Assembly (NCBI GenBank): GCA_000497125.2
Contig: CM035322.1
Span: 752,001 to 816,000, forward strand
Reading direction: 5' to 3'
DNA: 64,000 nt
From: Spironucleus salmonicida
Taxonomy: Eukaryota > Fornicata > Diplomonadida > Hexamitidae
In this document: piece after piece, positions 1,477 to 61,422 of the stretch
Layout: every line of letters begins with the position of its first letter
Position numbering within the stretch: position 1 is the first letter of the stretch
The notes under the pieces: model-generated
Told to the model about the DNA's origin: nothing
Seen by the model: the letters and a program-made list of their open reading frames with translations, nothing else
Databases searched by the model: none
Made by a program: the position numbers and the translations under genes

Positions 1477-1695
1477 ATGGATAAAATAAAACGTAACTTG
1501 TCGCAAATACGTAATATGTCCCAGGAGAACTTTCAAGCTGAAATAATAGAAACTAATGCCCTTACAGCCCATTATATCTAGAAAACTGCGACGAACACGA
1601 AATGCAAGCGAGACAGAGTGTACACATCCAATGAAAATATCGTCATGGCCCCAACCCCTAAAAATGCAAAAATGATGAATTTTGTAATTGAATGA
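1477..1695 (+). CDS. 72-aa paralogous small protein, member 1
   Basis: No known family recognised. This 72-residue protein aligns end to end without gaps with the products at 35208 and 55564. Shared blocks are LSQI..., SQE(N/D)FQ, NALTAH, KCK and a C-terminal MM(N/S)F(V/A)(I/L)E. It has one in-frame TAG (residue 35). At residue 16 it uses CAG where its paralogs use TAG, which is direct evidence that TAG means Gln. It is hydrophilic with no membrane segment or signal. An AT-rich stretch lies just upstream and the start context is AAATG. Function unknown. Confidence 0.75.
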
Positions 1696-1760
1696 GGCTT
1701 AATATTTTCAGCTTAAATTGCAGCCACAGCTTTTTTTGAGGCGTTTTACGAACCACTAGA

Positions 1761-2039
1761 ATGGAATTAGAGGAATATGTAATGTGCCAAAAAGCTAATT
1801 TTCAGCTATAATTGCAGAAAAGAGTACTAGCAGTATGCATATTTTTTATCCTTTTAGTTACATCCTTGCAAACTATTTTTTACTCAGAAAGCTCGCTGCT
1901 CTGGTTGTGCGCGGCTATGTTTATCCCAAATATTGCTTTTTTGGGCATAGCAATTACAGCTATTATAAGGATTGTGTCTAGTAAATCGGTAATAAGGAGA
2001 CTTAATGAGTCGTAGGAACCGTTCCTTCAGGCAGACTGA
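1761..2039 (+). CDS. small protein with two membrane segments
   Basis: A 92-aa frame ending in TGA with in-frame TAA (1809) and TAG (2013) read as Gln. After a short polar N-terminus come two hydrophobic stretches, roughly residues 20-36 and 46-70, then a basic, polar tail. The next gene downstream (2249) has the same two-helix layout and similar length, so the two may be diverged duplicates, although sequence identity is low. An in-frame ATG at 1782 is an alternative start. No family recognised. Confidence 0.55.
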
Positions 2040-2248
2040 GGTTTATATGAAACAAATATATAATAATATTTTTAAAAATAACGTAAACCAAAAACTTCAG
2101 ATTTGATAGAAAAGATAAATCGTATACTTTTATTTTACCAACTAAACAATAAAACAAGTAAAATTTTATTTATTTTATTTATTTTGTGTTTACGAAATAT
2201 TACTTAAATATATTAATTTAATTATATAATAATATTATTAATTTAAAA

Positions 2249-2515
2249 ATGGACAAAATAACTAAAATCGCTTTGGGATTGTTCTTAGTGACCACAAGTA
2301 TTGCTGCATCTGTATCGATTTGGTATTATACTCAAAATAATTTTCTAGTTTTACTTGCTATTGCAGTCATTTTCGCGAGTGCAGACTTGCTGATTTGTTG
2401 CTCAATTTTAGCTAGGTCATTAAAAGGTAGAAAAATGGCGATACGGAATACTGTTATCACTGATTTAATGATCGAAAGACGGAGTTTGCTAAATAACTAA
2501 GTTATTATATAATGA
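2249..2515 (+). CDS. small protein with two membrane segments
   Basis: An 88-aa product. Hydrophobic segments sit around residues 8-24 and 31-54, followed by a basic loop (RSLKGRK) and a hydrophilic tail. The frame runs through TAA at 2498 and 2510 to TGA at 2513-2515. It lies about 210 bases after another small two-helix protein in the same direction. It starts at ATG in an AAAATGG context just after a long AT-only stretch typical of starts in this window. Function unknown. Confidence 0.55.
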
Positions 2516-2995
2516 TTTATGGGCTTTGTAGTTTACAATATTATCTGTGAACATAGCCAATTTTTGTATATGAGAAATATGCTCCGCAGAATATGATGAA
2601 TTTATCTTAAATTTTATTACGTAATGAGTATGTTAAACCATAATGATTTGAGCATATCGTAATTATAATTAAAGCCTATATTTTGTCATTAAAAATTAAA
2701 TTTTAACTTTTTAAAAGTATGTTAGTGTTTTATTAATAAAATTGTTATCAGATTACTTATTCATAGTAAAATTATTACATTTATCTAAGGAATATATTTC
2801 CAGAAACAAATCATAATCGTAGTTATATGAAAATCTAACGATTTAAATCTGTAAAAAAGATAACACTAAATATTCTAAAAAATAAATTAGTTATTCTATA
2901 TTAATTGAATACTGTTTTTACTTAATTTATTCTATGTACTTTGATAAAATTTAAACTACTAATTAACTAAAATATTGTTATTATTTCCGTCAAAA
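2516..2995. other. AT-rich intergenic DNA
   Basis: About 480 bases of low-complexity AT-rich sequence between two small genes. No supported coding frame, RNA gene or repeat seen. Confidence 0.55.
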
Positions 2996-3271
2996 ATGGG
3001 CATAACCTCAAGCTCCGTCAATGAGCTTCCAAATCTCTATGATAAATGTGAAACATCATCAACCAATTAAAAAATAGTTTTATAATAAATTAATCCAAGT
3101 AATACCCGTAGTTTACCAAAGCTAGGGCCATAACATAGTAAAATATCATTAACATTAAATTCACAAAGTTTTCTAATGGGATAACCTCCTAAAAGAGAAC
3201 TCTCAGTTGTTATGAGATTATGTCAGTTTCAGACGTTGGTTGATTGTTGTGATAGTGATGAGTTTGTATGA
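2996..3271 (+). CDS. Met-Gly small protein (putative N-myristoylated)
   Basis: A 91-aa product beginning MGITSSS, a Gly-2/Ser-6 pattern compatible with N-terminal myristoylation. The rest is hydrophilic with no membrane helix. It has four in-frame TAA codons read as Gln and ends in TGA. It shares only the Met-Gly start and general character with the other Met-Gly proteins here (21416, 22792, 25306, 46426), so membership of one family is uncertain. Length and overall composition look coding, not random. Confidence 0.5.
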
Positions 3272-3905
3272 TAATCGGAATGCTAAGTATAAAATTTATC
3301 ATTATCACAGCTAAGTGTTAATATAGATATGAATATTTTAACCTTTACAAGTTGATAAGATACAACATATATATTTAAGATTTGATTATAAAAGTAAGTC
3401 CGAAATATAATATTAAGTGAAATGTAACTTATTTTCCTGTTACCTACCAATTTATACATTTATATTTTATTTTTGTCTAGAGCTTAAAATGTCAATCGAT
3501 TTATAATAATTCTATTCATTATGATGTAATTACTATTATTGAATAAAATTATAAATTATAAAACCAGGAAACTACATTAAGTAATTGTGAACGATAAAAC
3601 GGATGTTTGACATCAATAAAATCGAATTTGTATCTACAAAGGTGATAATAATATAAAAATATAATATAGAGTCTTGAAATCACTTAATTGTGAACCGTAT
3701 TTGGTAGTAAAGATCATTATTGTTTGATATTACTTAATATTTGTAAAAACAATTCTAACTCTATTCTTAAGTTAATTAAATAAATCGTAATATTTTGAGA
3801 AACTTTGAGTAGTATAATATAGATAATGAATTACTTAATCCAAAATTTAATGCATTGATGGCTTTATATATTAATATTATTTATTTACGTTCCACAGATT
3901 TAGTA
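3272..3905. other. AT-rich intergenic DNA
   Basis: Upstream region of the cathepsin C-like gene. Strongly AT-rich with many short TATA-like strings; no coding frame supported on either strand. Confidence 0.5.
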
Positions 3906-5754: not shown

Positions 5755-6975
5755 TCACTTGCCGCATCTGACTAATGCTTTCTTACCCAATTAGAAGCCA
5801 GCTTCTTTGCATTTGTTTAAAACGTCAACATCAACGTTGTATTTCCAAGTAACGGCGGGAATAGAATTGACGGCTCCTACTTTTTCAACATCAGCCTTCA
5901 TGTCTTTAGTAGCCTTTTCTGCCCATCCATATGCCCCAAAGAGGAAAGTTTCTCTGGTATTTAGCAGCTTGAGCCCGCCGCAATAGTTAATAACAGCGGC
6001 CTACGCAGGCATATAAGTGCTATTTAGAGTTGGGCTGCCTAAAGCAACGCACGGAGAGTCGTAAAAGTTGAGAGCTGCTTTTGTTATATCAGCAGCAGAT
6101 AACGGCAACATGTGAGGCACGGCCCCCGCGCTCTTAACGCCCTCTGCGATCGCTAGCGCGGCCCTAGCTGTAGTGCCGTACATGGTATCATAAACTATAG
6201 AGACTTTAGGCTTAAAATGCGTTTAAGCGCCAAAATCGAAATACTTCTTAACGGCCCATCCGACCGCATCGCCGCGGTAAGAGGCACCGTGCGCGACCAA
6301 AATGTTCTTAATCGAAAGCGTAGAGGCCGCCTCGACGGCCTTCTTAATTAAGTGCGGAACGTGCCCCAAAATGTTGGCCGTGTACTCGTCCATGAGCCGC
6401 TCGATTTGGCCCTAAGGAAGCTCGTCGGACCAGCGCTCAGCGGACGCCAAATGCTGCCCAAAGCCGTCGTTCGAGAACAAAGTTTAGTCGAATTCGGAGT
6501 AGGTGAACATGGAATCGGGCCAGTGCAGGAGCGGAACTGGGACGAATTTGAGGGTCCTTTTGCCGATATTTAGCGTCGATTTCGCGTCCACAATCTGCCA
6601 TCTGTCGAAATTCTTGAGGGAGGGGTAAAGGATTTGCAGGTGGTTCATGCAGATCTTGTTGGTCACAATCGTAGCGTTAACGCACTGATTTATGAACAGG
6701 GGAAGCGACGACGTGTGGTCGCCTTCTGCGTGGTTCATGATGATGAATTTGATCTTGTCCAGCGCGCAAACGGCTTAAATGCGCTCTAAATGCTCCTAAA
6801 CAAAGGGGTATTTGACTGAATCGATCAGGGTGGGCTGCTCGTCCATTATCAAGTACGAGTTGTAGGACGAGCCCTCGTCGGTGTGATAGCCGTGGAAGAT
6901 TCTGACCGCCCAGTCGACGATACCGACCCAGTGGATGTCGTCAAGCATAGGCTGAGGATTGGGTAGAAACGCCAT
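5755..6975 (-). CDS. flavodiiron protein (A-type flavoprotein, oxygen reductase)
   Basis: A 406-aa enzyme, the usual size for single-unit flavodiiron proteins. The N-terminal metallo-beta-lactamase-like half carries the diiron ligand motif NHAEGDH at about residues 81-87. The C-terminal half is flavodoxin-like, with an FMN-binding loop MYGTTA near residue 265. The family reduces O2 (or NO) in the cytosol of anaerobes, protecting oxygen-sensitive metabolism; Giardia and Trichomonas have homologs. The frame contains several TTA/CTA-complement codons, that is TAA and TAG read as Gln, and ends in TGA. The start at 6975 (MAFLPNP) was chosen over an in-frame ATG 15 codons upstream because family N-termini begin close to this point. 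Confidence 0.9.
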
Positions 6976-7299
6976 TTTATTTAATGGAGTGGTGCGGAAT
7001 CGGAAACGATGAAAATGCACTTATTTACACCTAATATTAAACTAAATTTAACTTTTTTGTATACTATCTTTATTCTTATATAATATTAACTTTATACTTT
7101 CCTAAATCTGTATACTATTAGATAGTTTTTTTTTCACATTTGACAAGTATATTTAATTATTATTATATTGTAATATTGGCATTTTTTTCTAAAAACTACT
7201 AATCAATTGTATGCCCAAAATTCGTTCATTCGCCCATATTCGTCAAAAACGCTATTCACGCTAACACATATACAACGAATCAAAACCGCCCAAATCCAC
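6976..7299. other. AT-rich intergenic DNA between flavodiiron and DRC11 genes
   Basis: Promoter-side DNA of the flavodiiron gene. TATA-like runs at 7056-7100 and a poly-T run at 7126; no gene supported. Confidence 0.5.
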
Positions 7300-10200
7300 T
7301 CACTTCTTCGGCACCTCCGGCTCCGGCAGCACCGGAAGCTCCTTCTGGGCCGCCATTTGCATCAGCGCCACGTGCGCGATTTTGCTGTCCAGATGCCCCA
7401 ATTCGGCCCCCAGCGCCTCCACGAACTCGCCGACGCCCAGCGGCTTCACGCCGAGCTGCGAGACGCGCACGCCGCTCAGCACCTGCGCCAGAACGCGCTG
7501 CATTTGGCCCGCTGAGTAGCCGTTGCAGAGCCGCGCGAGGCTCGAAAGGTCGAAAACGGTGTCGTTCGCACGGCTCGAAACGTAGCCGCTCTCGAGCCCT
7601 ATGAGCCCCAGCGCGCTGCATTTCGTCTCGATTTCGACCTCTACTTTGTCCGAATTCGTGTAGCGGACCTGCGTGGCGAGCCCCGAAATGCCGAATTCGG
7701 GCAGCCCGAAGCGCTTGAAAAAGTGGCTCAGGAGCTTCATTCGCATGTTGTAGTCCGGAAGCTGCAGGTAAATTACGTACGGCGCGAAGAGGTCTACGAG
7801 CGGTTTTTCGCGCTGGAACGTTCGCGTGGCCGTAGCGATGAAAATCGCGCCGTCTGCGTTGTTTATGCCCTTTATGAGGCTCAGAACCTCTTTTTTCATT
7901 CTAGAGGGGTTAAACGCCTGATCTGCGCTCTTCGGATAGCCCTCGCAGAGCATGCTCGCGCCTGGCGTCATTCCGTCGTCTTCCTTCATTTTCTTTCCTT
8001 TTTTGGCCTTCGATTTCGCGGCGCCGCTCAGAACTAGCTCGATTTCGTCGCAATAAATGACGACTTGGGGGTTATTGGCGATAATGACTTTTATCAATTT
8101 GAATAAATATTGGATTTCCACTCCCGCGAATTTGCCGATCAAGTTTGCGGGCGAAATGTCGATGAAAATTGCGCTCAATTCCGTCGCAATCGCGCGGGCC
8201 AAAAGCGTTTTCCCGGAGCCTGGAGGCCCCAAAAGCAAAATTTTGGTCGGCCGCGAAACGTAAAATCTGGAAAGGGGCGATTGGAGCGGAAGCAGTATAT
8301 CTAATATAATCTGGTCCTTAATAGCCGCATAGGAAGGGAATTCCGGGTCTTTTGCGGGCAAATTTTCGATTTCTAGCAGTTGGTTGCTGATTCCGAGCTG
8401 TTTCAGGGCCTCTACGGACTGATTTTGGAGGAATTGGGACTGCTGCGATCCGGATGAGAAAAACGTGTCAGAAGCGATGAATTGGTCGAGTTTCGCCGGT
8501 TTTATGTGTTTTATGACGTTTTCGGCTATCAATTCGGCGTACGCGGCCTCTGCCTCTGGAGGGCCTACGGGGCCCAGTTACGCGATTTCTGGGAAAACGA
8601 GAATTTTGCGTTTTGTCGGTTTTGGGGCTTTAAAAGGCTTTTTCTTCTTCTTTGAGTCCATATCTGAGGTATAATGGTACGCCTCAGCGATGTCCCTGAG
8701 GAATTTCTCGATTTCGTCGTAAATGTCGTCAAAAACCTTTCTGAAAACGCCTGGGCGGATGAGCTCTTTCACAAATTCGGACTCGTAGACGTTCTCTTCG
8801 GTGTCTAGACGCTGCCAGCGGTTGAAATAGTCAATCGACGAATCGACCAAATCGTTCACGTACGCTGACAAATGCTGAACGGCGGCAAGGTCAGGGTCAA
8901 CTACCTCGTCTTTGCCTTTTTTGGCAGGCTCGATTTTGCCTTTCTTGCCCTTTTTGCCTTTTTTCTTTTTCAGTGCAGCGAATCGCTCGGCTTCGTCTTT
9001 GATAACTTGGTCATAAAGCGCTTATTCGTCCGCTGTCTAAATGACTGGTGGCTTGACTGGATATAAGCCAGATTCGTTTTCTGGATCATCTCTAAATTGC
9101 TCTAAAGCCAGCTCATAGCGTCTTCGCAGCTCAGTTTTAAGCGCAAATGCCTCTTCTTTCAGCACATCCTACTCGACATATCCTTTCTCTGACTCAAATT
9201 AGGCCTCTACAGAAAGTGCAAGAGCTAGTGTGTTTCTGTCGTTCATGATGTGCTTATATTCGTCGGATTGCATAAACAAAGCTGCTTGTTTGATGATTTT
9301 TTGACGAATTGCTTCTGGTGCAACGCAAAGTCCCGAGTCGCACACGTTATCGTATGAGCTAAAAACTTCAGGCTGTATTTTTGCGTTATTCTTGTCAATT
9401 ATTCTAGATAAGTTCCAATTTGTTTCTAACGGATCATTTGTGGCCGGATCTGTGTGATTCGATAGCGGGCATAGCGAAACCTGCATTTATAACGGCAAAG
9501 CAGCAGTGATCTCAATTTGCTCTTATTTTCCGATCTAGAAAAGCGTTTTTTCCAATTTTTGTTGGATTTGCACCCGCTCGTGCTCTTTAGCCTGCAGGTA
9601 CTGTCTCTCGCTTTTTACAGTGTCGATGCTGACGAGATCCTGAACCATGCTTATTATGCTGCTAGTATCGTCCCGGCTGATGCCTAAAAACACCAGTTCC
9701 GCGCGCTTTTTCTCCTCGGCACGTCTCTTTCTCAGGTAGCCACGCCAGAAACGCTAGATGCACTCAGCGGCCTGCGAGCGGTTCACGATCACGTCCTTCT
9801 TAACTGTGTTGTTGACGCTCGTTTTTACGATGTCGCGGACGAGTTTCGCGCGCAGACGGGCCGTTCGGCCACGCTCGCCGCGCTGGAGGATTAAAATCGC
9901 ATTTTCGACAGACATCTACTGCTTCTCCTCGTTCTCTTCCAGAATTCCGATAGCTCCGACGCCGGGGACATAGTTTTGGAGGAAGTGCTGCGCATCGAAG
10001 GCCGATCCATTAAATTTTGGCTGGTAGCGCTCGTACAAGATCCTGAAAAGTTGGTTGCGCTTGATGGGAATCGAGTCGTACTGCCTCTGGAGCTCTAAAT
10101 GCACGTCCTACGAATTGGTAATTTGGAAAAAATCGACCGTGTATGTCCTGTTAAAGAGGGAGACCACTTGTTTGGTCTCCAGGAGGCGTGATACTACCGC

Positions 10201-10416
10201 ATCTAACGCTTTTTTTATTGATATGCGCTTTTATGGATGTGTCTGGATTTGTAGCGCTCTATTGAGGATTTTGTATATTTCCACATACTGTTAGTAATAT
10301 TACACGTTCAGGGCAGCTAGCTGGTCAGATTTTAGTTTTTATGTGGGGGTGAACTGTTCCTTTTGAATTTAAGCTGTAATAAGTGTCATGGCATGCTACC
10401 AGAGCCTGTCCGCCAT
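7300..10416 (-). CDS. DRC11: IQ motif and AAA ATPase protein, DRC11/IQCA-type (nexin-dynein regulatory complex)
   Basis: A 1038-aa protein. The order is an N-terminal helical region typical of IQCA/DRC11, an IQ calmodulin-binding motif around residue 215 (AAECIQRFWRGYLRKR), long coiled and charged stretches including a Lys-rich block near 500, then one AAA domain with Walker A GPPGSGKT near residue 730 and Walker B VIYCDE near 790. In flagellates this protein sits in the nexin-dynein regulatory complex that links outer doublets and controls beating. The reading frame is continuous only with TAR as Gln; the standard code breaks it into at least six pieces. The terminal TGA is at 7300-7302. Strong call on domain order and length. 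Confidence 0.88.
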
Positions 10417-13019: not shown

Positions 13020-15719
13020 TCATTCTTAAATAGTCTAAGTTGATGCAAGTGTCAACATGGTGATTTAAGTTCCAACAAACAAAGCAGATTTATCCTGATA
13101 AAATTAAATGACATCTCTCCAGATTCCTTTAGGTTTGGATAAATGAGTTGCATTACCAATAATAATAAACATATTTCGAGCTCTAGTAAATGCCACGTTT
13201 ACACGATTTTTCTAGTGTAAGAACCCAATTAAGTCTTTGTCATTGGAACGAACAGCAGAGAAAATGATAACATCTTTTTCTCGACCTTAAAACCCATCTA
13301 CAGAATTTACTTCTATCTATGGATAATTAACTAACTGATTTTTAAGCAGCGATTGTTATGCTGCATATGGTGTAATAATACCAATATTCTGTTAATTTAT
13401 CTTATATTCGATTAATAACTACTATATCATAGAAAGAACAGAATCTGCCTCAACGTTATTATAATATGACATTGATGAATCTTAACTTTCTTCTGATTAA
13501 AGACTCCAGAATAAAGATGGGAAATTAGGTGGGAATTTTTTAGTAATAATTGGCTAACAAGAATTTGTCTTAAAAGTTCTTTAATTTATATCAACCACAG
13601 ACTTAATCTAACCATAGTAGAACTACTCATTGGGGAATTCAAGTAGTCCGGGATGCATACGATATTGTTACAAAAGACGAATTGGCTTAATCCCTAAATT
13701 AATAAAACGCTAATACAACGATCTGCCAAATTAGGATGCTTTAGCATTTGTGCCCTCTACTACAGGTCCTAATTAGTTTTAGTCTCCTACCAAAATAAAA
13801 TGTTTTGGAACTATGGAAATAGGCATTATTGATTCAACTTCTAGAACTTGCGAAGACTCATCTAATATTAACGCTGCAAATTTAACTAAACGTATCTTAT
13901 CGCTATTAACAGCACCACAAGTAGAAATAATGACATCTGCTTTACTAATTTCATATTCTTCTAGGTCCTTGTATGCATCATATACATATTTTCCAGTATT
14001 CTCTTCAGACATAAAAATATTTAGAATAAAATATTAATTTATACTATCGTTTAAATCTTAAGATATCACATTATTATTAACATATGAATTAGACCTGACA
14101 TTAGATCGAATAATGTTATGCAATGAAATGCTTTTTAACTCCGGTGACACGCTTTAATCATTAAATTCTTCCCTAGATTTGGCATAGATACGAAGAACAT
14201 TCGCTTTAACTTTGTGGCAAAATAAAGCTATATTATCTGCTGCAATATTAGAACCAGTACAACAAAGTATTTATTGATCATTATATTATTTTAACAAGCA
14301 CAAAACCAATATAGCCGATGTATAAGTTTTACCTCCTCCTGGGCAACCTTAAATTAGGCTTATACTATTTGTTAATGCTGTTTTGATAGCTAATGTCTAA
14401 TATTCATTTGGATACTAGCAATGAACCTAATCAAGATCGGCTTTTACAGAAGTAATAATATTTTAAACATTATCTAACTAGGGAATATAACACTTTGCTT
14501 CTTTGAGGAGACTCTAAATGTCTCCTTCACCCTTTAATATTTTTAAGTTTATTTCACTTGAAAAATTAATATACTTTATTGTCGAAATCATTAAATGCAT
14601 CATAAAATTTGTTTATGAATATTTAAGAGAATATATTACATCATCGTCCGCACGAAATACATCATGGTCATTAAATAAGATGTTATGTATAGATGTAGCA
14701 TTTTCTGACAACTTAATACTATTTAGTTCTATCTTATTAGCTTCATGTATGACAACCTGTAAACACACTTTTGGAGGAGCAGAATACAATTTAACTATTA
14801 TTGTATCATCAACCGACCTGATTAGGCCTGTCAGTATATGAACTTATCCTTATGCCATTTATACTTCCAAACAAATTTCGTCACCAGGTCTAATAATTTA
14901 ATTGCATAATCTTTAATACCTAGGCCAAGAGAAAAATGCTTCAAATAATTAGCCGTCTTTAGTTCTGAATTAAACTGCAGTTGTTGAAAGTAATTACTTA
15001 CCTTACTCAATTTAAATATCTTTAGTTAAAAATTCTACTTTCAGTGCTTTTATCATAAAATCCGAATAAGTAAATATTTTAGTAGCCAACGAATTAATCT
15101 TTTATTATAGTGTTGGATTGTTTACAGCTACTAGAAGTTCATCTTCTATAATGATTGCTCCATCCTAAATTTCTTACTAAAACTAAAATTACAAATAAGG
15201 CATATTTGATACCATTTTAACATCTTATCCACATTAAGGGAATCTTTACGGAATAATGAATAATTAACTATTAAGCAAATCTAACTCTCTCTATCTGTCC
15301 GAAACATCGCAAACTAATTACTATTCAATTTTTTTAATATGTGCCTTGGCAACTGCCGTTTCGTTTAGATTTTCGAGATTTTTATACTCCTCTATAAGCT
15401 CTTTACTTGGGGTGCCGAGCAAAAATAGAACTTTGTTCTTAGAAATAACTGAGAAACTATCTTCAGTTTTATGATTCCTACATAAATAACTTTCGTCAAT
15501 ATCCTTATATAGTGACACAATATTCTCTCTACCACAATCTTTACAGCAAGGAATGCCTTTATATGGGAATTCAAATGAGGTATGACTTGTTTCTTTGATA
15601 TGACGTAAAATATGAGAAATTGATTTCTCATTTAGTTAGCTGTTACAAAAATGAAGATTACATTTAGTGCATCTTGCCAGCAAAAACTTAGACGTTAAAT
15701 CACAATATTCGCATTTCAT
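13020..15719 (-). CDS. UPF1: UPF1 RNA helicase (nonsense-mediated decay)
   Basis: An 899-aa SF1 helicase. The N-terminal CH zinc domain is evident: CEYCDLTSKFLLARCTKC at residues 3-20, further Cys and His pairs to about residue 80. A 1B-type beta domain follows. Walker A is GCPGGGKT near residue 455, motif II ILDESSQ near 620, motif III GDYQNQLGPVV near 645, QYRMHP near 675, and motifs V/VI VDGFQGREKD and NRVNVAFTRAR near 815-845. UPF1 monitors premature stops, so its presence in a genome that has lost two stop codons is notable. The gene has many TAA and TAG Gln codons, including one in the conserved GFQGRE motif, where UPF1 proteins have Gln. Moderately AT-rich. Confidence 0.93.
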
Positions 15720-15802
15720 TTGTACGAGGAGTGAAAATTAAAAATATAAATCTCCTTGTATATTGTATAATAATATATATGTATTCCAAATTGAAGGTAT
15801 TA

Positions 15803-15812
15803 AATATTATAC
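15803..15812 (+). promoter_or_regulatory. TATA-like element upstream of the 131-aa gene
   Basis: AATATTATAC lies 17 bases before the ATG at 15830, at the junction from AT-rich to GC-rich DNA. Similar elements at similar spacing precede other GC-rich genes here (29661, 50607). Confidence 0.4.
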
Positions 15813-15829
15813 GCTCCGCTGCCCCCATA

Positions 15830-16225
15830 ATGGAGAACTAAATATTTGCGTCATGGACCAAATCCCTTACAAAGGATATGCCCGCGAGCCAGTACAATGC
15901 GAAAAACGTCCAGAATCGACTGTATTCCAATAAATATGTGCTGTTTGAGGACCTATACGCGACAAACCCGCAGGCCGTCCAGTTGCCGTCCATCCAGCAA
16001 AAGTTTCAGCGGAAGGCGACGAATTCGAAGCCACAGAACGCCAAGGCGCTCACACGCCGTTTAGATGCGTCGCCGCCTCTCGCCAGGGCGTTATCAGAAG
16101 TCCAATCGCTACAGGACCGTTTTCAGCAGTTACGGAAAGCGGCAAGGTCAGGGCCCCTGGACCGCTCGAACCTGCGCTTTAGCACGCTGCTGCTCAGCTC
16201 GTAGACGTTTCAGAACATCAAGTGA
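15830..16225 (+). CDS. hypothetical 131-aa protein
   Basis: A GC-rich, basic, Gln- and Ser-rich protein without membrane segments; family not recognised. One TAA (codon 4) and one TAG (16202) are in frame; the TGA stop is at 16223-16225. It diverges from UPF1 with only about 110 bases between the two starts, so they may share a promoter region. Probably largely disordered. A flagellar or cytoskeletal role is possible but nothing in the sequence shows it. Confidence 0.65.
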
Positions 16226-23827: not shown

Positions 23828-24661
23828 TCACTCAGGTACGATGAGGAAGCACACGTCCTCCACGTTGCACTCGTTCACGCCGCGGATCATCTTGAAGTAG
23901 CCGCCCTCGCCCCAGGTGCTGCCCCAGCTGTTCTTGAGGAGCCAGTACGGGGTGTCGTTCTCCACGCCCCATCCCACGAGCATGACGGCGTGCGAGCCCT
24001 CCACCCCGCCGCTGACGTGCTCGTAGACGCCCGAGTGGTAGTAGTCGAAGTCGCCGTACACGGTGAAGGCGGTCTGCACGGTGCCGCGGAGCAGCGCCTC
24101 CATGATGCTGCGCTCGCTCTGGCATACGTACTCGAACGCCGCGCCCCGGTGGAAGTGCAGGGGGGAGCGGTCCTCGCAGCGCCTCGGGCACTTCCCGGTG
24201 GCCCCGGAGCGCCCGGAGGTGTAGGGAGCGCAGGCGTCCGCGACAGTGCCCGTGCGGACCAGGAACTGCTGGGCCAGGAGCAGCCAGCCGCCGTTGCAGC
24301 CCTCCTGCCCCTGGGTGTTGCAGGACACCACGTACTGCTCCGAGAGCGCCGTGCGGGCCGCGCCGGCGATGCAGCGGTTGTCCGCGAGCTGGTCCACCGC
24401 GGAGAAGGCCCAGCAGGAGCCGCAGCTGCCCTGGTCCCTGACGGTGTCCGGCCCGGAGCACTCGGGGCGCAGCGCGGGCCAGAGGTGCTCAAGCGGGAGG
24501 GCGCCGTCCGAGGGCACGAAGGCGGCGTAGCGTTCCGGGGCGGGGCCCGCGTGCGGTCTGGGCAGGAGGGGCCGCCTGGCAGTGGGGGCGCCCGGGACCC
24601 AGCGGAGGCCGGAGTGGGCCTGGAGCTCGCGCAGCATGGCGTCGGCGAGGGTGAGCAGCAT
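23828..24661 (-). CDS. cathepsin B-like cysteine protease, copy 1
   Basis: A 277-aa C1A protease. Catalytic Cys-83 lies in [11 protein letters not shown], His-224 in [10 protein letters not shown], Asn-244 in [12 protein letters not shown]. The CNGGW motif at 122-126 is typical. It has a short prosegment and no clear occluding-loop His pair, as in Giardia cathepsin B-like enzymes. The N-terminus is only weakly hydrophobic, so secretion is uncertain. Very GC-rich, with no TAA/TAG codons. It differs from copy 2 (29688) at three residues seen here: Ala/Val-27, His/Arg-169 and Glu/Gln-214. It acts in digestion or secretion by family analogy. Confidence 0.93.
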   Translation of the reverse strand: MLLTLADAMLRELQAHSGLRWVPGAPTARRPLLPRPHAGPAPERYAAFVPSDGALPLEHLWPALRPECSGPDTVRDQGSCGSCWAFSAVDQLADNRCIAGAARTALSEQYVVSCNTQGQEGCNGGWLLLAQQFLVRTGTVADACAPYTSGRSGATGKCPRRCEDRSPLHFHRGAAFEYVCQSERSIMEALLRGTVQTAFTVYGDFDYYHSGVYEHVSGGVEGSHAVMLVGWGVENDTPYWLLKNSWGSTWGEGGYFKMIRGVNECNVEDVCFLIVPE

Positions 24662-24678
24662 TTGCGGAAGGTGCCGAG

Positions 24679-24688
24679 ATTATACAAT
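24679..24688 (-). promoter_or_regulatory. TATA-like element of cathepsin B copy 1
   Basis: On the minus strand ATTGTATAAT, 17 bases before the ATG at 24661; identical to the element of copy 2. Confidence 0.45.
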
Positions 24689-25045
24689 TGGGAAGGGGGA
24701 CCAACACGAGGGCCCTTCTTACCCAATGGGAGTGCCAGCCTAAATGCCGCTCTACGCCATCTCTAGTTTTCCACGGCGGCGCCCTGCTCCTTGTCAGGGA
24801 TCTGGGCGGCGCGCTCGTTCGTGGGCGAGGTCCAAGGAGCGTACCAGCAACAAGAACCTAGATAGGATGTGATCATGGGGAGAACAGAAGATCAGAGGAT
24901 GGATATTAGAAGGAGAAGATGATATGATTATGTGATAGATTGTTTTGGAATATTCGATTTATATTAGTATATATAGATTTACAGACGAAATAAATTGGTT
25001 TATATAATTAGATGCTAGAAATATTTGATTAAATGATAATATTAA

Positions 25046-29310: not shown

Positions 29311-29660
29311 GTTATTTATTTTTACTTTAACCTTAATTACCACAATGTAATTATATTAGCTAACTGATGAAATCCACATTATAACATATTGATATTCTTA
29401 TTCAGCAATAGATACAAGCATTAAGAGTAATATTTACCTCAATGAAATTCATACTATATCATGTACAATCTTATCAAAAGTTAGTATCTAGGTTCTTGTT
29501 GCTGGTACGCTCCTTGGACCTCGCCCACGAACGAGCGCGCCGCCCAGATCCCTGACAAGGAGCAGGGCGCCGCCGTGGAAAACTAGAGATGGCGTAGAGC
29601 GGCATTTAGGCTGGCACTCCCATTGGGTAAGAAGGGCCCTCGTGTTGGTCCCCCTTCCCA

Positions 29661-29670
29661 ATTGTATAAT
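29661..29670 (+). promoter_or_regulatory. TATA-like element of cathepsin B copy 2
   Basis: ATTGTATAAT, 17 bases before the ATG at 29688, the only AT-rich string in a GC-rich leader. Its spacing to the start matches that at 15803 and 50607. Confidence 0.45.
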
Positions 29671-29687
29671 CTCGGCACCTTCCGCAA

Positions 29688-30521
29688 ATGCTGCTCACCC
29701 TCGCCGACGCCATGCTGCGCGAGCTCCAGGCCCACTCCGGCCTCCGCTGGGTCCCGGGCGCCCCCACCGTCAGGCGTCCCCTCCTGCCCAGACCGCACGC
29801 GGGCCCCGCCCCGGAACGCTACGCCGCCTTCGTGCCCTCGGACGGCGCCCTCCCGCTTGAGCACCTCTGGCCCGCGCTGCGCCCCGAGTGCTCCGGGCCG
29901 GACACCGTCAGGGACCAGGGCAGCTGCGGCTCCTGCTGGGCCTTCTCCGCGGTGGACCAGCTCGCGGACAACCGCTGCATCGCCGGCGCGGCCCGCACGG
30001 CGCTCTCGGAGCAGTACGTGGTGTCCTGCAACACCCAGGGGCAGGAGGGCTGCAACGGCGGCTGGCTGCTCCTGGCCCAGCAGTTCCTGGTCCGCACGGG
30101 CACTGTCGCGGACGCCTGCGCTCCCTACACCTCCGGGCGCTCCGGGGCCACCGGGAAGTGCCCGAGGCGCTGCGAGGACCGCTCCCCCCTGCGCTTCCAC
30201 CGGGGCGCGGCGTTCGAGTACGTATGCCAGAGCGAGCGCAGCATCATGGAGGCGCTGCTCCGCGGCACCGTGCAGACCGCCTTCACCGTGTACGGCGACT
30301 TCGACTACTACCACTCGGGCGTCTACTAGCACGTCAGCGGCGGGGTGGAGGGCTCGCACGCCGTCATGCTCGTGGGATGGGGCGTGGAGAACGACACCCC
30401 GTACTGGCTCCTCAAGAACAGCTGGGGCAGCACCTGGGGCGAGGGCGGCTACTTCAAGATGATCCGCGGCGTGAACGAGTGCAACGTGGAGGACGTGTGC
30501 TTCCTCATCGTACCTGAGTGA
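29688..30521 (+). CDS. cathepsin B-like cysteine protease, copy 2
   Basis: Near-identical to copy 1, with the same catalytic Cys-83, His-224 and Asn-244 and the same length. Codon 214 is TAG (30327-30329) where copy 1 has GAG. In this genome that is Gln for Glu, not a truncation: the frame goes on through the catalytic His and Asn to the same TGA. Residue 214 lies ten residues before the catalytic His, so specificity could change slightly. Because the copies diverge only by a few substitutions, the duplication is recent or homogenised. Confidence 0.9.
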
Positions 30522-35207: not shown

Positions 35208-35426
35208 ATGAACACAATCCAGCGCAGCCTATCGCAAATAGCGAATAAGTCTTAGGAAGACTTTCAGACCGAATTGCTGGAGAACAACGCCCTGACTGCG
35301 CACGACATCAACGCCGCAGTAGATCCGGTTAAATGTAAGCACGACGGGGTCTACGTTTCGCACGATAGCCTGGTCATGAACACCACGCACAGGAACACGC
35401 TGATGATGAGCTTCGCGCTGGAGTGA
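35208..35426 (+). CDS. 72-aa paralogous small protein, member 2
   Basis: Same length as the protein at 1477 and aligned without gaps. Residue 16 is coded TAG (35253-35255) where the 1477 gene has CAG. Hydrophilic, GC-rich, ends FALE then TGA. Identical in protein sequence to the copy at 55564. It sits about 250 bases after the HEAT gene in the same direction and tail-to-tail with the Myb pair. Family unknown. Confidence 0.75.
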
Positions 35427-37992: not shown

Positions 37993-38133
37993 ATGAAAGT
38001 TTTTACTGATTAGGTAATATTAGAATCATTACTTAAACGTGTATAAATAATTCATAATTGGATTAAAGAAATCATAATTTAAATTTCTAATAATATAGCA
38101 AAGTGTCTTGCTAAAATATAACAATTAGAATGA
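37993..38133 (+). CDS. DQVILES small protein, member 1
   Basis: A 46-aa product whose first half, FTDQVILESLLKRVQ, matches FKDQVILESMLTRVQ at 61291. Codon 7 is TAG here and CAA there, and several neighbouring codons differ only at synonymous third positions, which supports real translation of this frame. Helical and amphipathic, it may be a small coiled-coil subunit. Too short for family assignment. Confidence 0.6.
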
Positions 38134-38573: not shown

Positions 38574-39869
38574 TCATCCACTGGTAGTGTTGAAAAGTGT
38601 TTCATCGGAGGATTTTTTCTACACTGGATTAAAGCTAAGAAATTAACTATAACTGAATGCCTCATCTTATTTAGCAAATAGATAGCAGCTTTTAAAAATA
38701 TAATCAATATCTACTGCACAAAAATTATAAGAGTTAACAGTGTCTATACCATTAAATAATAAACTTTTATCTTAGAAATACACCTACTATTATTACTTAA
38801 TGCCATATTTTTCTCTAAGAAACTCAATTAAATTTTATGTATAAACTAAATGTGTTATTTCTTTATTGCTAAGTGTAGCAGTAACTCTTCCTCCATGCAA
38901 TATTATACTATGAATTAAAAGATCTGGTCGATCGTTATAACTAGCAGATAATATATACTCACCATTGTATTGTATAAAATATTTATCTTTATTAATGGGA
39001 ACATAAAACGTGCAGTTTTTAAAAATAGATTATCTATACTATTTAAAAAATAATTCTGTGGAATGTAGCTACTAAATATTTTATCTAATAAAAGTAATAA
39101 TATTAACTAAACTAAACAGTTGGTCTTAAAAAATCTATTCCTAAAAAGATGAAAGTTATATGCAAGAAAATTCAATATGAGATTATAAAGGTATAAAACA
39201 CTATGAATTAAATGATCTATACGGTATAGACTTAAGAAAAGCCGCAGAAAATAGTTTGTTGCACCAAGGAAGTGATTAATCATCAAATATTATACTTCTT
39301 TTACGTAATATTTTACTGCCTCTAGCACCGTTCTCTACCATTTTTTTCATACCATGATGTTCTCTTGCAATTATATCAATAATAATCTCTCTATTAGGGT
39401 CAATTATGTCAGCAATTTAAACTGCATAGTTATAAACTGAAAGAGTAGAAATAATAATCTTAACTTATTACTTTACCATATATAAAAATTTAAATAGACC
39501 TGGTCGTATTGCTATATTTAATTCTTAACCATCTATTTAAAGATAAAACTCTTTTTAGGCTGATAAACTTTTATAGTAATCGTTAATAGAGTTTGAGGTT
39601 TTGAATAACTATTTTGCATTTTCGTATGTAAATTAACTAGAATCAGGTTATTTTGCAACTAATATAGTATTATCTAGATCTAAGAATAATAAAATTAGAT
39701 TTTTATTGATAAATTATTATTCTAATAATTATGTTTTTATTTAGTAGTTAGTGTATTTGATATAGATATTTTATGTTAATCTATAAGCGTATTTCAAGGA
39801 ATTATTATCTATAACTGAATTGCAATGCTAGCATATACTTTATCTTGACACCCGAAGGTGTTCGCACAT
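38574..39869 (-). CDS. FCP1-like RNA polymerase II CTD phosphatase with BRCT domain
   Basis: A 431-aa protein hidden by AT-richness and dozens of TAA/TAG Gln codons. The N-terminus CEHLRVSRQSICQHC matches the zinc-ribbon-like opening of FCP1. The catalytic acid motif is DLDNT at residues 64-68 (FCP1/SCP family DxDxT). The IRPGLFKFLYMV block and an IIFDD acid motif follow. The C-terminal third is BRCT-like: SIFKNCTFYVP ... IILHGGRVTATLSNKEITHLV, then AVDIDYIFKSC. FCP1 dephosphorylates Ser residues of the polymerase II tail in the nucleus. The start at 39869 is set by the Cys-containing N-terminus. The domain order argues strongly for FCP1 rather than an SCP-type phosphatase. Confidence 0.82.
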
Positions 39870-40038
39870 TTAATTAAAAAGGAAAAATGATTTAATAAAA
39901 ATATATTATTTTATAATATGTGAGTAATAAAAATAAAATTTTATATATATATGATTTAATAGACGAAAAGTTGAAATTATTCTATTAACTAGAATAACAT
40001 TCATTTCTCTTTATAATTATGAATAAACCAAACTATAT

Positions 40039-40260: not shown

Positions 40261-42024
40261 GTGAAGGAATTTTTGCATGCCGACGGTCTGCCATTGCGAG
40301 CCCAGGTCTAGACAAATGGAACATATCACTCAGAAGAAGAAGTCCTCATACTGACTACCCCCTGGGAGGAACTCACATAGGAGTGAGTTCTCAGGAACGT
40401 ACTGCACAGGGATTGGGAGCATTGGCTCTAACATGCGGAGTAAGCGCTTGGCCTGTGGATAGTTGGGAGATATGTGCGGAACCTATCTAAGAAGAGGAAC
40501 GGCAAACACGCGAAGGACAAACTGCTCGTACATAATAGATGAGTTAAAATACACGTCAGCTTTGGTCTGATTGGGGAGAATCCAGATGTCCTCGCCTTCG
40601 CGAACTGCGGGCCAGGAGTCCAGCGTGCTATCGGCAGAGCGCCCGCGGAAGAGGAAATCGCGGCACATTCTACGAAGGAGGCGCGAATCCTGGTGCTCGA
40701 TGGTGCGAAGTTCGTCCCAGGCGAGGGTGCCAATAGGCTAAATAAAAACCCTGAGGCGCATGCTCTGGGGGACCACCTTGGTAATCTCGTCATTGAGAGC
40801 GTGGATACCCTCAACTACCAAAACCCCAGTTGGGGACAACTTCAGCTTCTTTCCATCTCCCGGTTATCCCCTTTTGAAATCGTAGGAGGCCATGATGATC
40901 TCCTCGCCATTAATCAAACCAGCCAAAGTCCTCTAAATACGTGCGATATCCAGGGCATGAAGGTGTTCGAAATCTGGTTTGTCGGTTCCCTTTAGTCTAG
41001 GGGCATTCTCTGGTAGACCGTAAAAATCATCCAGCGATACTCTTACTGGCTCGAAAGAACGACCCCTGAGCATGCATGTCAGCCTATTGGCAAACGTGGT
41101 TTTGCTAGAAGATGACGGTCCAGCAACGAAAATAACTCGCGTTTAAGGCGTAGCTCTCATAGCAACTTCAGAAATCTATCTCTCGTGGTTAAATTCAGCG
41201 AATGCAATAATTTCCTACAAAACCTTAGGCGATGCCGAAAGCTGATTCAGCGATGCCGCTGAGTTGAACCCTATAGTATTTGCTTAGTGAAGATGCAAGT
41301 CCATTATCGCCGCAATTTCTTCCTAAAGTTTAGAGGAATCCCGCAGAGGACATACTTCGGGTTCTTCAAATTACCCATAGTACACTAAGAAACCTTGATG
41401 GAAAGGGACTAGCTTGTAAGTTCCAGCGATTGCATCTGTGTTCGCTAAGAAAGGCTAAAGCCACATTGCAATATAATCATGGTCTCCATATTTAACAGAA
41501 GCGACATCAATGACAGACTTGTTCAAAGTTTATAGTAATTCAACTGTTTAGTTTTGGCTAAACTTTTTAAATTGGATAATGGCATCTTTAAACGAAACAA
41601 CTTCACGGTGAATAGGAATTTTAGCGTCTACAATATCATTCATAAGTTTCTAAATATTTTTAATGTCCTATTTAGAACATGCCATTTCATTATATTAGAA
41701 GTAAAGCGCTTTTCCAATATTATAACGATGTTTCAGCGTTAAACCTGGGTACGCAAGCGTAGATGCCATATGAGTTATGAGACAGATTGTATCCTATAGC
41801 ATAGGCAAAGCGTGTAAATCATCACAATACATAGGTTTTATCGATGAAGAGATATCTAGTTTCTCATTCAGTGATAAAATTTCGTTGTTACTATAGAATG
41901 CAACAATTCTAGGATCTCTAGGTAACACATTATAAGCATGAGTGTTTTAATCTACTTATATGGTTTTTTGCTCGTCTATCAAGTATAGGTCGATTTTTTC
42001 CTTATCATAGATGTCAAAAATTGA
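40039..42024. repeat. inverted repeat 2, left arm (1986 bp)
   Basis: Reverse complement of 42374-44359 (positions sum to 84398), equal in length and with no difference noticed in any segment compared. The spacer is 349 bases. The inner end lies inside the uridine kinase gene, the outer end inside the NagB-LmbE gene. Confidence 0.95.
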
Positions 42025-42243
42025 GTTAAATTATGAATTTTATGAATTTTAGCTAGTAGTAGTACGTCCTATAGTTGTTGCACTCAATATATTTTTCTAT
42101 GAGTATTCATTTATTAACACTTTATTTTAAGTATTTTAATGATCAATCCAAAATGGTTGAATCTCATATTATTTATACATAGCATTAAGTTAACATTTAA
42201 TATCTTGGATTTCATTAAATATTCGTTATTGTGGATTATTCAT
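40330..42243 (-). CDS. uridine kinase-like P-loop kinase fused to ThrRS-like N-terminal region, long copy
   Basis: A 637-aa protein. Residues 1-70 are unique to this copy and are Gln/Asn/Ser/Thr-rich (TTTSQNSQNSQ). A threonyl-tRNA-synthetase-like region follows (ITHMASTLAYPGLTLKH..., HREVVSFKDAI). The uridine kinase domain has Walker A AGPSSSSKTTFANRL near residue 373, SLDDFYG, and VVEGIHALND. Such fusions are known as uridine kinase-family proteins in bacteria and some anaerobic protists. It would phosphorylate uridine or a related nucleoside. In-frame TAA/TAG codons are read as Gln; the stop is TGA. From 42024 on it is identical to the copy at 42365. Its start lies 121 bases from that copy's start, head to head. 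Confidence 0.78.
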
Positions 42244-47778: not shown

Positions 47779-48714
47779 TCACTTAAATTAACGTCTATTA
47801 ACTTATGGTTAATCATTAGATTATGGTGCTTAGTTAGCATAGTCAGCTGGTTATTGCTATTATTAATCTTATTCATATCTTCTTTCTTGCTATGGTCTCT
47901 ATACATTATCAAATTCACGTCTTTAATAAGGTTGTTAAGTATTATAATCTCTAGGCTATCTTGGTCTATAATCATTTTACTATGGAGGAAATTGCGAGTT
48001 ACTTTAATAATTTGGATTATATGGTCTTTAATTTTATTAATATCTAGGCTGATAAGGTTGTTATATTTCTCTTGATGCGTTGTAATCTCTATTTTATGGT
48101 TGATATGGTCTTTATTATTAATTATAATCTCTAGAATATTAGTTATCATAGTTTCTTTACGGTTGGACAAAATCTTTAGGAGGATAGGCACCTTCTCTTG
48201 GTTATTAAAAATCACGTGATTATCCATAATTAGATTAATATTATTATCTAGGTTAATAAGATCCTCTTTGTTAGTAGTCATCTCTTTGGTTATTACCATA
48301 TTGCTGTTATTAATATTATTACATTTTTCTTTCTCTATTTTTACTACTAATATCCTCCCATAGCTTAGTTTCTTCTTCTGGGGTAAGATTGGAAACAGTA
48401 GCAGTCTGACCTCCTAAAATAATAGGTTCATCAACAGAACCTTTGACTGCATTCTAAACTGCTTCTGGATTTGATTCAGAATTAAAGCGGATAATAGCAG
48501 AATCAGTTCCTACTCTATAATCTATATACTTTACTTCTCCAAACTTAGAAAATATCTCTTTTAAATAATCTCTTGTAACTCTATTTTCCGCTGGATTCTA
48601 AGATTCTGGAATATACTCTTTATCAACTCTACCGTCAGTAACTCCTACCAACCCTATGTTTGCTACTCTAATCATAACATTTGTTGGATATTTTTATTCA
48701 GGGAGAGGATCCAT
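47779..48714 (-). CDS. La-type xRRM protein with Gln/Tyr/Arg-rich prion-like tail
   Basis: A 311-aa protein. Residues about 14-125 form an RRM close to the La/LARP7 xRRM: TRDYLKEIFSKFGEVKYIDY, then a SAIIRFNSES strand and an AVQNAVKG helix. From residue 130 to the end the chain is almost only Gln, Asn, Tyr, Arg, Pro and Asp, with RDYN and RGSYQPR motifs: a disordered, phase-separation-prone tail. Most of its Gln are TAA or TAG, so under the standard code the tail vanishes and a misleading Asn-rich frame appears in its place. No N-terminal La module is seen, so this is La-related rather than true La. Nuclear RNA chaperone role inferred. Confidence 0.75.
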
Positions 48715-48846
48715 AATACTAAAGTGAAAAATAGAGTGAAAAACTTATTTATTATCATTATTATATACTTTATTAATTTAATACTAGTATATAATTAATT
48801 CATAACATAAGTATTATATTATTATTAACATTTATTATTTTTTAAT

Positions 48847-50004: not shown

Positions 50005-50018
50005 GCGGTTGGGTCGGG

Positions 50019-50616: not shown

Positions 50617-50634
50617 CAGACCCGCTTCCCACGA

Positions 50635-57475: not shown

Positions 57476-57493
57476 TTTTGAGTAAGGCAGGAA

Positions 57494-59423: not shown

Positions 59424-59645
59424 TCACTTCCACTGCAAGTTGTCCAGCAGCGCCTGACCCTTGCCCTGGTCGGTGATGACGATGCTCTCGTTCGAGGTGG
59501 CGATGCCGGACGGCATTCGCCTGAGCTTGGGGGCCTCCTGCTGGCATCCAACGTTCAGCTGGCGGTTCCCGTACACCTGCTGCTTAATGTCATTCTCGGG
59601 GTTCGTCTGCCCGATGGCGGCCAGTGGCCCAGTGAATTGGCTCAT
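59424..59645 (-). CDS. hypothetical 73-aa protein, right copy
   Basis: Mirror copy of the gene at 50635, identical in protein, with its TATA-like element at 59664-59673. Confidence 0.55.
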   Translation of the reverse strand: MSQFTGPLAAIGQTNPENDIKQQVYGNRQLNVGCQQEAPKLRRMPSGIATSNESIVITDQGKGQALLDNLQWK

Positions 59646-59952
59646 TCGTGGGAAGCGGGTCTGGTATATTATCGGGTTACTGCCCTTTGACCAATTAGGA
59701 GGGGACTCAGCAACTGACGCCCGCCGCATATTAGCGCATATACCGAGCAACGGCGCGACCTGCAGTTTCGACGTTTCGCCCAGCCGGTCTCGTGCCAGGC
59801 CTGCCGCAAAGGCGGACCGCGCAGCCCACTCCCCGGTGTAGGAGCAGCGCAGCGTGCTAGCCGCCTGGGAGCCGCACCGCTGCCGCGCGAACCAGACCCA
59901 CTCCCCAAACATATGGCTTATATATAAAATACAGCAGGTCCCCCGCCATCCG

Positions 59953-60261
59953 ATGGGCATGGAACGCTCCAGGAAGTCCTACGAGGACGAGATCGCGAAG
60001 TGTCTGTCCCACCAGCCCCGGCACGACCGCGACACCTGCCCACCGCGGGCGGTCCGGCCGGCCAAACCAGTACCGCCGCCCCACCCGCTGGCCAAGCCTC
60101 CCGAGGCCTCAAACTCGTCGTACCGCCTGCTGCTGCGGGAGAACACGGGCCTGTCGGACTGCATCGTCACCCAGGCCGGCAGCATCTTCCAGCCGCCGCG
60201 GCCCATGCCCAAGATAGCGAACCTGAAGGACCAGATGATCATCTTCGCAATCGACGAGTGA
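59953..60261 (+). CDS. hypothetical 102-aa Pro-rich protein, right copy
   Basis: Mirror copy of the gene at 50019-50327, identical in protein and leader. Here its 3' neighbour is the truncated ASH2 fragment rather than the whole gene. Confidence 0.65.
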   Translation: MGMERSRKSYEDEIAKCLSHQPRHDRDTCPPRAVRPAKPVPPPHPLAKPPEASNSSYRLLLRENTGLSDCIVTQAGSIFQPPRPMPKIANLKDQMIIFAIDE

Positions 60262-60275
60262 CCCGACCCAACCGC

Positions 60276-60495
60276 TCACTTCTTCATCTTCTTCATCCGC
60301 AACCTCCCGTCTCCGTAGAAGCGCGCGATCTCGTAGTGCAGATCCACCGTGTACTGCCCCGCTGCGACCTCCTGCGCGAGCACCTGCTGGTCACGCCGCG
60401 CCCTCGCAAGGTACAGCGCGCTGAAGCCCTGCACCGGCCCCGGCGCGCCCGCCTGGATCGCCTCCAGGAACGCGAAGCTGTCCGGGTCGATTTCG
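60276..60495 (-). pseudogene. 3' fragment of ASH2
   Basis: Copies the last about 73 codons of the gene at 48847-50004, up to the same TGA. The SPRY domain is lost at the repeat boundary (60495), and the upstream AT-rich DNA offers no fitting start. One substitution is seen near the edge (GAC for GAT). Confidence 0.85.
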
Positions 60496-61290
60496 TCATA
60501 AACAACCCCGTAAATTACTTATCTTAAATTTCAAGAATATATATTAATAGCTATAATTATGTATTTGGCATGTTCTAAAATCTTACGCATGATAAGAAAT
60601 AGATTAACCAAACATATATCAAATATGTATTATAAAATTATAGAATGAATTATCTTACATTATGTAAATTGTTAATATATTCTATGTGAAAATTAATAAA
60701 GTATTAATAAAAAGTAAATAACGTTTCAATTTTAGTATCAACAATTACTAAATAATAGTATTTCAACCGAATACTTAACTCTTATCCATAGTTTAACTTT
60801 TAAGTTAAAACTACTAACCTCACAGTCAAACTAAGGGTTTTTGATGGTTAAATCTTTTTTACTTATATTCAATATTTAAAATTATATACGCAATAATAAT
60901 TCGCGTTTGTATTAAGATTATTAAATTCGTTATATTAATTTAATGATTTTAAAAATAATTTGATTTTAACCAGAAAAAACATAAAATTTGCAGTTACTAA
61001 TTATTAGATCACGATAGCATATAAGTATAATTAAATTTCAGATTTTATTTTGAAACATATCTATATTGTAAAAAAAAATATTGTGAATATTTACAGTAAA
61101 ATCAAATAAGAGTACAAATAAAGTTGTGATATATATTATATTTATTATTATTAATACAACTTAAAGTTTTTCTTCACAGTAAATGAAGATAAATTTATAG
61201 GCTTCAAATATTAAAACTACATTAGCTTTAACAGCCAGAGGAACTACAAGAGGGGTGAAAAGGGGTGAAAATAATATATAAATACTTGAA
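60496..61290. other. AT-rich intergenic DNA
   Basis: Begins exactly at the outer end of inverted repeat 3. No gene supported. A minus-strand frame at 61161-61475 overlaps the conserved plus-strand small gene and is treated as a shadow. Confidence 0.5.
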
Positions 61291-61422
61291 ATGTTAATTT
61301 TTAAAGACCAAGTAATATTAGAATCAATGCTAACACGAGTGTAAGTGCTAGATATGAGAGTAAAAGAAATAGAATATATACTTATGGAACGAAAATCAGC
61401 TTTTCTGATAGGAAGTAAATGA
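61291..61422 (+). CDS. DQVILES small protein, member 2
   Basis: A 43-aa product, MLIFKDQVILESMLTRVQ at the start, matching the protein at 37993. Here codon 7 is CAA where the other has TAG. Downstream halves diverge. Differences in the shared part are mostly synonymous (GAC/GAT, CTA/CTT, CGA/CGT, GTG/GTA), indicating selection on this frame. Function unknown. Confidence 0.55.

What the first reader, a model, noticed from the sequence alone, without database searches (positions are those of the whole stretch)
1477..61422. TAA and TAG are glutamine here, provable from paralogs inside the window
Three independent comparisons. (1) The 72-aa paralogs at 1477 and 35208: codon 16 is CAG (1522-1524) in one and TAG (35253-35255) in the other, in a conserved SQE context. 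(2) The DQVILES proteins: codon 7 is TAG at 38011-38013 and CAA at 61309-61311, amid synonymous changes. (3) Cathepsin B copies: GAG in one, TAG (30327) in the other, with the frame continuing to the catalytic His and Asn. Nearly every confident gene also ends in TGA and carries internal TAR codons. This is the known hexamitid-type code.
Basis: partly seen in the sequence, partly recalled or inferred. Interest (0 to 1): 0.8.

Follow-up and report, generated by a model that had tools for sequence, protein, structure and literature searches.

The report
Known stop-to-glutamine code in Spironucleus

Summary
The window is G000:C7:752001-816000 of a genome whose eRF1 is 100% identical to the entry named Spironucleus salmonicida, on a contig of the same length. 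All three paralog comparisons are at the stated coordinates. Comparison 3 (GAG against TAG) does not alone show glutamine, but solved cathepsin B has Gln at that place.

A blind test, with TAR masked as X and profiles built from homologues without known hexamitids, gave Gln for TAA (78 positions) and TAG (42 positions) in six genes. It gave the table-6 meaning for 60 of 63 codons, and 0 of 5000 random column draws reached either score.

The genome has two tRNAs with anticodon UUA and one with CUA, nearest to its tRNA-Gln among the 25 anticodon kinds compared. Its eRF1 departs from the standard residues at several stop-recognition positions, mostly shared with Hexamita inflata. TAR is not depleted near the ends of 22 genes.

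Papers state this code for S. salmonicida (PMC1805757, PMC3916229, PMC6879139). What remains open is which eRF1 changes cause UGA-only termination.

The parts
1477..1695 (+). 72-aa ORF, paralog A; codon 16 CAG (1522-1524), codon 35 TAG
35208..35426 (+). 72-aa ORF, paralog B; codon 16 TAG (35253-35255)
37993..38133 (+). 46-aa ORF with DQVILES; codon 7 TAG (38011-38013), three TAA codons
61291..61422 (+). 43-aa ORF with DQVILES; codon 7 CAA (61309-61311), one TAA at codon 18
29589..30521 (+). cathepsin B-like cysteine protease (PF00112); TAG at 30327-30329 opposite Gln of solved cathepsin B
23828..24760 (-). cathepsin B-like copy with GAG at the same codon; no TAR inside its Pfam envelope
13020..15854 (-). 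UPF1-like helicase ORF of 944 aa (the matching database protein P0001 has 899 aa): 43 TAA and 19 TAG, 56 of them between residues 47 and 902; used in the decoding test
5755..7182 (-). flavodiiron (A-type flavo-) protein; homology to PDB 2q9u runs from residue 76 to the last residue before TGA; 7 of its 12 TARs lie inside that stretch
7300..10416 (-). DRC11-like AAA protein, 17 TARs in the ORF
38574..40004 (-). NIF-type phosphatase (PF03031): 39 of 41 Gln codons are TAR
40330..42243 (-). PRK/uridine kinase family protein (PF00485), 28 TARs in the ORF
47779..48831 (-). RRM_3 protein: 47 of 60 Gln codons are TAR

Best explanation
The window is DNA of the diplomonad Spironucleus salmonicida, which uses the hexamitin form of NCBI table 6. 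TAA and TAG are ordinary glutamine codons and TGA is the stop. Shown here: both codons decode as Gln; the genome has tRNAs with UUA and CUA anticodons that resemble its own tRNA-Gln; and eRF1 departs from the standard residues in the TASNIKS, YxCxxxF and neighbouring positions, most of these changes being shared with Hexamita. Inferred: GlnRS charges the two suppressor-type tRNAs; the changed eRF1 no longer competes for UAR, so these codons are read without ambiguity; and it still releases at UGA.
For: Paralog pairs TAG/CAG and TAG/CAA. Blind decoding of six genes: TAA n=78, Gln 48.3 nats, next Lys 20.8; TAG n=42, Gln 34.3, next Lys 14.1. Gln ranks first in 12 of 12 gene-codon pairs (narrowly in two: UPF1 TAG 2.7 against Glu 2.6, eRF1 TAG 3.2 against Lys 3.0), 60 of 63 codons get their table-6 meaning, and 0 of 5000 random column draws reach either score. 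tRNAs: UUA at C6:1035570 and C6:1478314, CUA at C6:674693; ordinary Gln UUG at C1:184552 and CUG at C13:2059. The UUA and CUA tRNAs score nearest to each other and to the Gln tRNAs, with tRNA-Arg(ACG) a distant next. eRF1: seven positions (57, 58, 60, 61, 70, 72, 126) that hold one residue in at least 112 of 116 other eRF1s are changed in both hexamitids. Identity of the organism. Published statements (passages).
Against: No result here favours another amino acid.
Confidence: 0.98

Rival explanations
1. TAA and TAG encode glutamate, as in some ciliates, rather than glutamine.
For: GAG opposite TAG in the cathepsin B pair. In UPF1 alone the TAG scores for Gln and Glu are nearly equal (2.7 and 2.6). 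No tRNA-Glu was in the tRNA comparison.
Against: Pooled scores: TAG Gln 34.3 against Glu 10.0; TAA Gln 48.3 with Glu not among the best four. The tRNAs resemble tRNA-Gln. CAG and CAA stand opposite TAG in two paralog pairs. Solved cathepsin B has Gln at the GAG/TAG codon.
Confidence: 0.005
2. Context-dependent code: TAR is Gln inside genes but can also stop translation near mRNA ends, as described for the ciliate C. magnum (PMC4967479).
For: Not tested gene by gene against transcripts. The base after TAR is C less often (49 of 394) than after CAR (92 of 316), but TAR-rich genes are AT-rich, which could give the same.
Against: TAR share of Gln codons is 30 of 49 in the last 30 codons and 364 of 661 in the gene body, Fisher p=0.46 (22 genes). 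eRF1 and FDP end at TGA where, or within five residues of where, their homologues end. PMC3916229 calls TGA the only stop codon used (passage).
Confidence: 0.015
3. Standard code: the TAR-bearing frames are pseudogenes, sequencing errors or chance open frames.
For: With one stop codon long chance frames are common: 111 ATG frames of at least 150 aa in 64 kb, many overlapping.
Against: TAR lies inside the Pfam-matched span of 13 of 15 genes and inside RPB2 and eRF1 domains, with Gln-specific columns and tRNAs that match TAR.
Confidence: 0.001

Closest known systems
Hexamitin diplomonad nuclear code (NCBI table 6; Keeling and Doolittle 1996 and 1997, seen here only as references in PMC1805757 and PMC11787283)
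   Same: UAA and UAG are Gln, UGA is the stop; the organism is itself a hexamitin.
   Different: No difference found.
Ciliate and dasycladalean UAR=Gln codes (table 6)
   Same: Same codon meanings.
   Different: Separate lineages; PMC5304391 speaks of at least 13 independent UAR changes (abstract). S. salmonicida shows no excess of tandem stops, unlike UAR-reassigned ciliates (PMC6879139, passages).
Iotanema spirale code (Fornicata; UAG=Gln only)
   Same: A fornicate with UAG as Gln.
   Different: There UAA stays a stop and eRF1 has T32G (PMC5304391, PMC9161772, passages). Here UAA is also Gln, Thr32 is kept and other positions are changed.

Membership tests
Hexamitin UAR=Gln code (NCBI table 6) | TAA decodes as Gln at conserved positions | tested here: met
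   78 positions in six genes, Gln 48.3 nats against Lys 20.8
Hexamitin UAR=Gln code (NCBI table 6) | TAG decodes as Gln at conserved positions | tested here: met
   42 positions in six genes, Gln 34.3 nats against Lys 14.1; paralog pairs
Hexamitin UAR=Gln code (NCBI table 6) | TGA is the stop codon | tested here: met
   Checked in two genes whose C-terminus is set by homology: eRF1 and FDP. For the other genes the TGA end follows from the ORF calling, so that it is the only stop was not tested here; PMC3916229 says so (passage).
Hexamitin UAR=Gln code (NCBI table 6) | Gln-type tRNAs with anticodons UUA and CUA | tested here: met
   Two UUA and one CUA gene, nearest to tRNA-Gln among 34 distinct tRNA sequences of 25 anticodon kinds; tRNA-Glu not in the set
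Hexamitin UAR=Gln code (NCBI table 6) | eRF1 altered at stop-recognition motifs | tested here: met
   Against 116 eRF1s: G57T, T58Q, N61C, S70A, L72Q, L126S shared with Hexamita; S60D (Hexamita S60A); G31S, N129G, K130V in Spironucleus only (Hexamita has S at 129)
Hexamitin UAR=Gln code (NCBI table 6) | organism belongs to Hexamitinae | tested here: met
   eRF1 100% identical to the Spironucleus salmonicida entry on a contig of 1877751 bases, the length of contig C2; RPB2 likewise on 1696856 bases, the length of C4. PMC5304391 lists Spironucleus in Hexamitinae (passage).
Hexamitin UAR=Gln code (NCBI table 6) | Gln found at TAR by peptide sequencing; tRNAs charged with Gln | not testable with these tools
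   needs mass spectrometry and aminoacylation assays

The most novel reading that the evidence does not exclude
The changes that Spironucleus and Hexamita eRF1 share and that are absent or rare in 116 other eRF1s (G57T, T58Q, N61C, S70A, L72Q, L126S, with S60 also changed) are together sufficient for UGA-only release. This would be a hexamitin solution different from the T32G change of Iotanema, and one ancestral event would have freed UAA and UAG together.
Probability: 0.35. Interest if true: 0.4.

Novelty: already known. Interest (0 to 1): 0.12.

Why it matters
It matters in practice: reading this genome with the standard code breaks genes such as UPF1, RPB2 and eRF1. The code change itself has been in print since the 1990s (references in PMC1805757). 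The part with remaining value is the set of tRNAs and the eRF1 changes, which make a release assay straightforward to design.

Tried and rejected
A first decoding pass with UPF1 and eRF1 only gave Gln for both codons, but TAG by only 3.0 nats (7.1 against Lys 4.1), and 52 of 61 codons agreed with table 6. Four genes were therefore added: RPB2, two RPB2 paralogs and an Ile-tRNA synthetase-like gene. The names IleRS and ValRS are from recall; the calls show only PF00133. ValRS (L072) was read but given no profile, so it is not in the decoding test; it is in the position test. The three polymerase ORFs lack their N-terminal part because the loci end there.

Homologues dropped before building profiles. 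UPF1: of 120 listed (455 found) 22 were used (P0004-P0016, P0019-P0023, P0025, P0027, P0030, P0031); the rest are the protein itself, Hexamita proteins or weaker hits. eRF1: P0121-P0124 dropped, 116 of 120 listed (6489 found) kept (P0121 self, P0123 Hexamita, P0122 and P0124 records whose scores did not fit their names). RPB2: P0241-P0243 and P0245-P0247 dropped, 114 of 120 listed kept. IleRS: all 26 bacterial loci kept. Aligned residues with posterior probability below 8 were left out. The 116 eRF1s are the top of a capped list, so they are not an even sample of eukaryotes.

Position test: 22 genes, 16 from the window (three of them without a Pfam match) and 6 from elsewhere. One cathepsin B copy, one PRK copy and the short ORFs were left out to avoid counting duplicates.

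tRNA census is incomplete: one search scored 63 of 903 candidates, so gene numbers are lower bounds. Some of the 34 'distinct' tRNA sequences differ only in the ends that ARAGORN set. The pattern for tRNA-Glu found nothing.

Rfam on the window: no match at the gathering score. Pfam on eight ORFs, seven in or near the GC-rich repeats and one at 61419: no match.

Papers: only passages found by search terms were read of PMC9509377, PMC3916229, PMC1805757, PMC9161772, PMC6879139, PMC5304391, PMC11787283 and PMC4967479. Keeling and Doolittle 1996 and 1997, and Inagaki et al. 2002, were not read. No supplements were read, so whether the Spironucleus eRF1 is in the alignment of PMC5304391 is not known here.
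Full report
What the window is. The window is G000:C7:752001-816000 of a 14.47-Mb genome in 37 contigs. RPB2 matches in the same way on a contig of 1696856 bases, the length of C4. [quoted passage not shown]

The observation. In the 72-aa pair codon 16 is CAG against TAG, within SQE. In the DQVILES pair codon 7 is TAG against CAA. In the cathepsin B pair 5 of 311 codons differ and one is GAG against TAG. The first two are direct evidence for Gln. The third shows only that the frame continues, but the best PDB match, procathepsin B 1pbh (human, from recall), has Gln at that codon (SGVYQHV). Of 15 genes with Pfam support (14 scanned with a match out of 19 scanned, plus a near-identical copy of one of them), 13 carry TAR inside the matched span. 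The remark that genes end in TGA is partly circular when ORFs are called with table 6. It was checked independently in eRF1, which ends level with Hexamita eRF1, and in FDP, whose last residue before TGA aligns with residue 409 of 414 of PDB 2q9u (the Giardia protein, from recall).

Blind decoding. TAR codons were masked as X, and profiles were built from homologues without S. salmonicida or Hexamita. The score of each amino acid was summed over the profile columns opposite each codon. In six genes (UPF1 from the window; eRF1, RPB2, two RPB2 paralogs and an IleRS-like gene from elsewhere in the genome) TAA gave Gln 48.3 nats against Lys 20.8 (n=78) and TAG gave Gln 34.3 against Lys 14.1 (n=42). 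Gln came first in all 12 gene-codon pairs, narrowly for TAG in UPF1 (2.7 against Glu 2.6) and in eRF1 (3.2 against Lys 3.0). The same procedure recovered the table-6 meaning of 60 of 63 codons; the three misses were AGT (Thr over Ser), CTA and TTA (Met over Leu). Random draws of as many columns reached the observed Gln score in 0 of 5000 trials for either codon. An earlier pass with two genes gave the same answer with less margin and 52 of 61 codons right.

tRNAs. ARAGORN finds two tRNA genes with anticodon UUA (C6:1035570+, C6:1478314+) and one with CUA (C6:674693-), besides ordinary tRNA-Gln UUG (C1:184552-) and CUG (C13:2059-). Among 34 distinct tRNA sequences from this genome, the two UUA sequences score 73 with each other, UUA and CUA score 40-42 with each other, and all three score 28-44 with the Gln tRNAs; the best score with any other tRNA is 17. 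The set lacks tRNA-Glu. The 2007 survey had not found UAR-decoding tRNAs (passage of PMC1805757); the 2014 and 2022 genome papers give totals of 145 and 162 tRNAs without naming these in the passages read. So the anticodons are a detail added here, not a claim of first description.

eRF1. The S. salmonicida eRF1 reads QADCIKS for TASNIKS and YSCDGVF for YLCDNKF; Hexamita inflata reads QAACIKS and YSCDSKF. In human numbering both share G57T, T58Q, N61C, S70A, L72Q and L126S, and both have lost Ser60. Among 116 other eRF1s the residue found in the hexamitids occurs at these six positions in 0, 0, 1, 4, 1 and 0 sequences. Other shared changes lie at 35, 56, 69, 73 and 122-124, some conservative or seen elsewhere (69Q in 12 of 116). 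The single N61C outside hexamitids is P0225. Thr32, Glu55, Tyr125 and Cys127 are kept. PMC5304391 names GTS, TASNIKS, YxCxxxF, E55 and S70 as recognition elements (passage), while PMC4967479 finds no obvious association of single eRF1 substitutions with variant codes (passage). That these changes cause UGA-only release is an inference.

Use of TAR. In 22 genes TAR supplies 364 of 661 Gln codons in the gene body and 30 of 49 in the last 30 codons (Fisher p=0.46). Its share of Gln codons falls with GC3 (Spearman -0.90), as expected if TAR and CAR are exchanged mainly by mutation bias. In highly expressed genes CAG is preferred (RSCU 2.11 against 0.83 for UAA and 0.63 for UAG; Table 2 of PMC1805757). 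There is thus no sign of a position-dependent code, though the test is small. The genome also has a tRNA-Sec with anticodon UCA at C1:1707653-, already reported.

Verdict. This is the published hexamitin code, stated for Spironucleus in PMC1805757, for S. salmonicida in PMC3916229 and PMC6879139, and for hexamitins in PMC5304391 (passages read). Interest is low because nothing here would surprise a specialist. The testable remainder is the causal role of the shared eRF1 changes.

Noticed in passing
window 49785-54518 and 55762-60495; 40014-42024 and 42374-44384; 23798-24864 and 29485-30551; 35406-37122 and 52802-54518: Four near-perfect inverted repeats (99-100% complementary, 1.1 to 4.7 kb) in 64 kb, two with spacers of only 1243 and 349 bases. 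They could be real recent duplications or fold-back assembly artefacts; read data would be needed.
   Followed up: no
window 49390-60700, with related copies at 34641-37122: GC-rich repeated stretches (about 50-56% GC in 4-kb windows) with long frames open on both strands and no Pfam match in the seven ORFs tried there.
   Followed up: partly
L009-L012 (G000:C3:1376914 to 1395884): Four tRNA-Ile genes with anticodon GAU. From recall, nuclear tRNA-Ile of eukaryotes usually has AAU; whether an AAU gene also exists here was not tested.
   Followed up: no
L101 (G000:C1:1707653-1707736, -): tRNA-Sec with anticodon UCA, so the stop codon TGA may also be read as selenocysteine; known from PMC1805757 and PMC3916229.
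   Followed up: partly
window 1477-1695, codon 35 (1579-1581): A second TAG in the first 72-aa paralog stands opposite AAC, so that pair is not purely TAG against CAG.
   Followed up: yes
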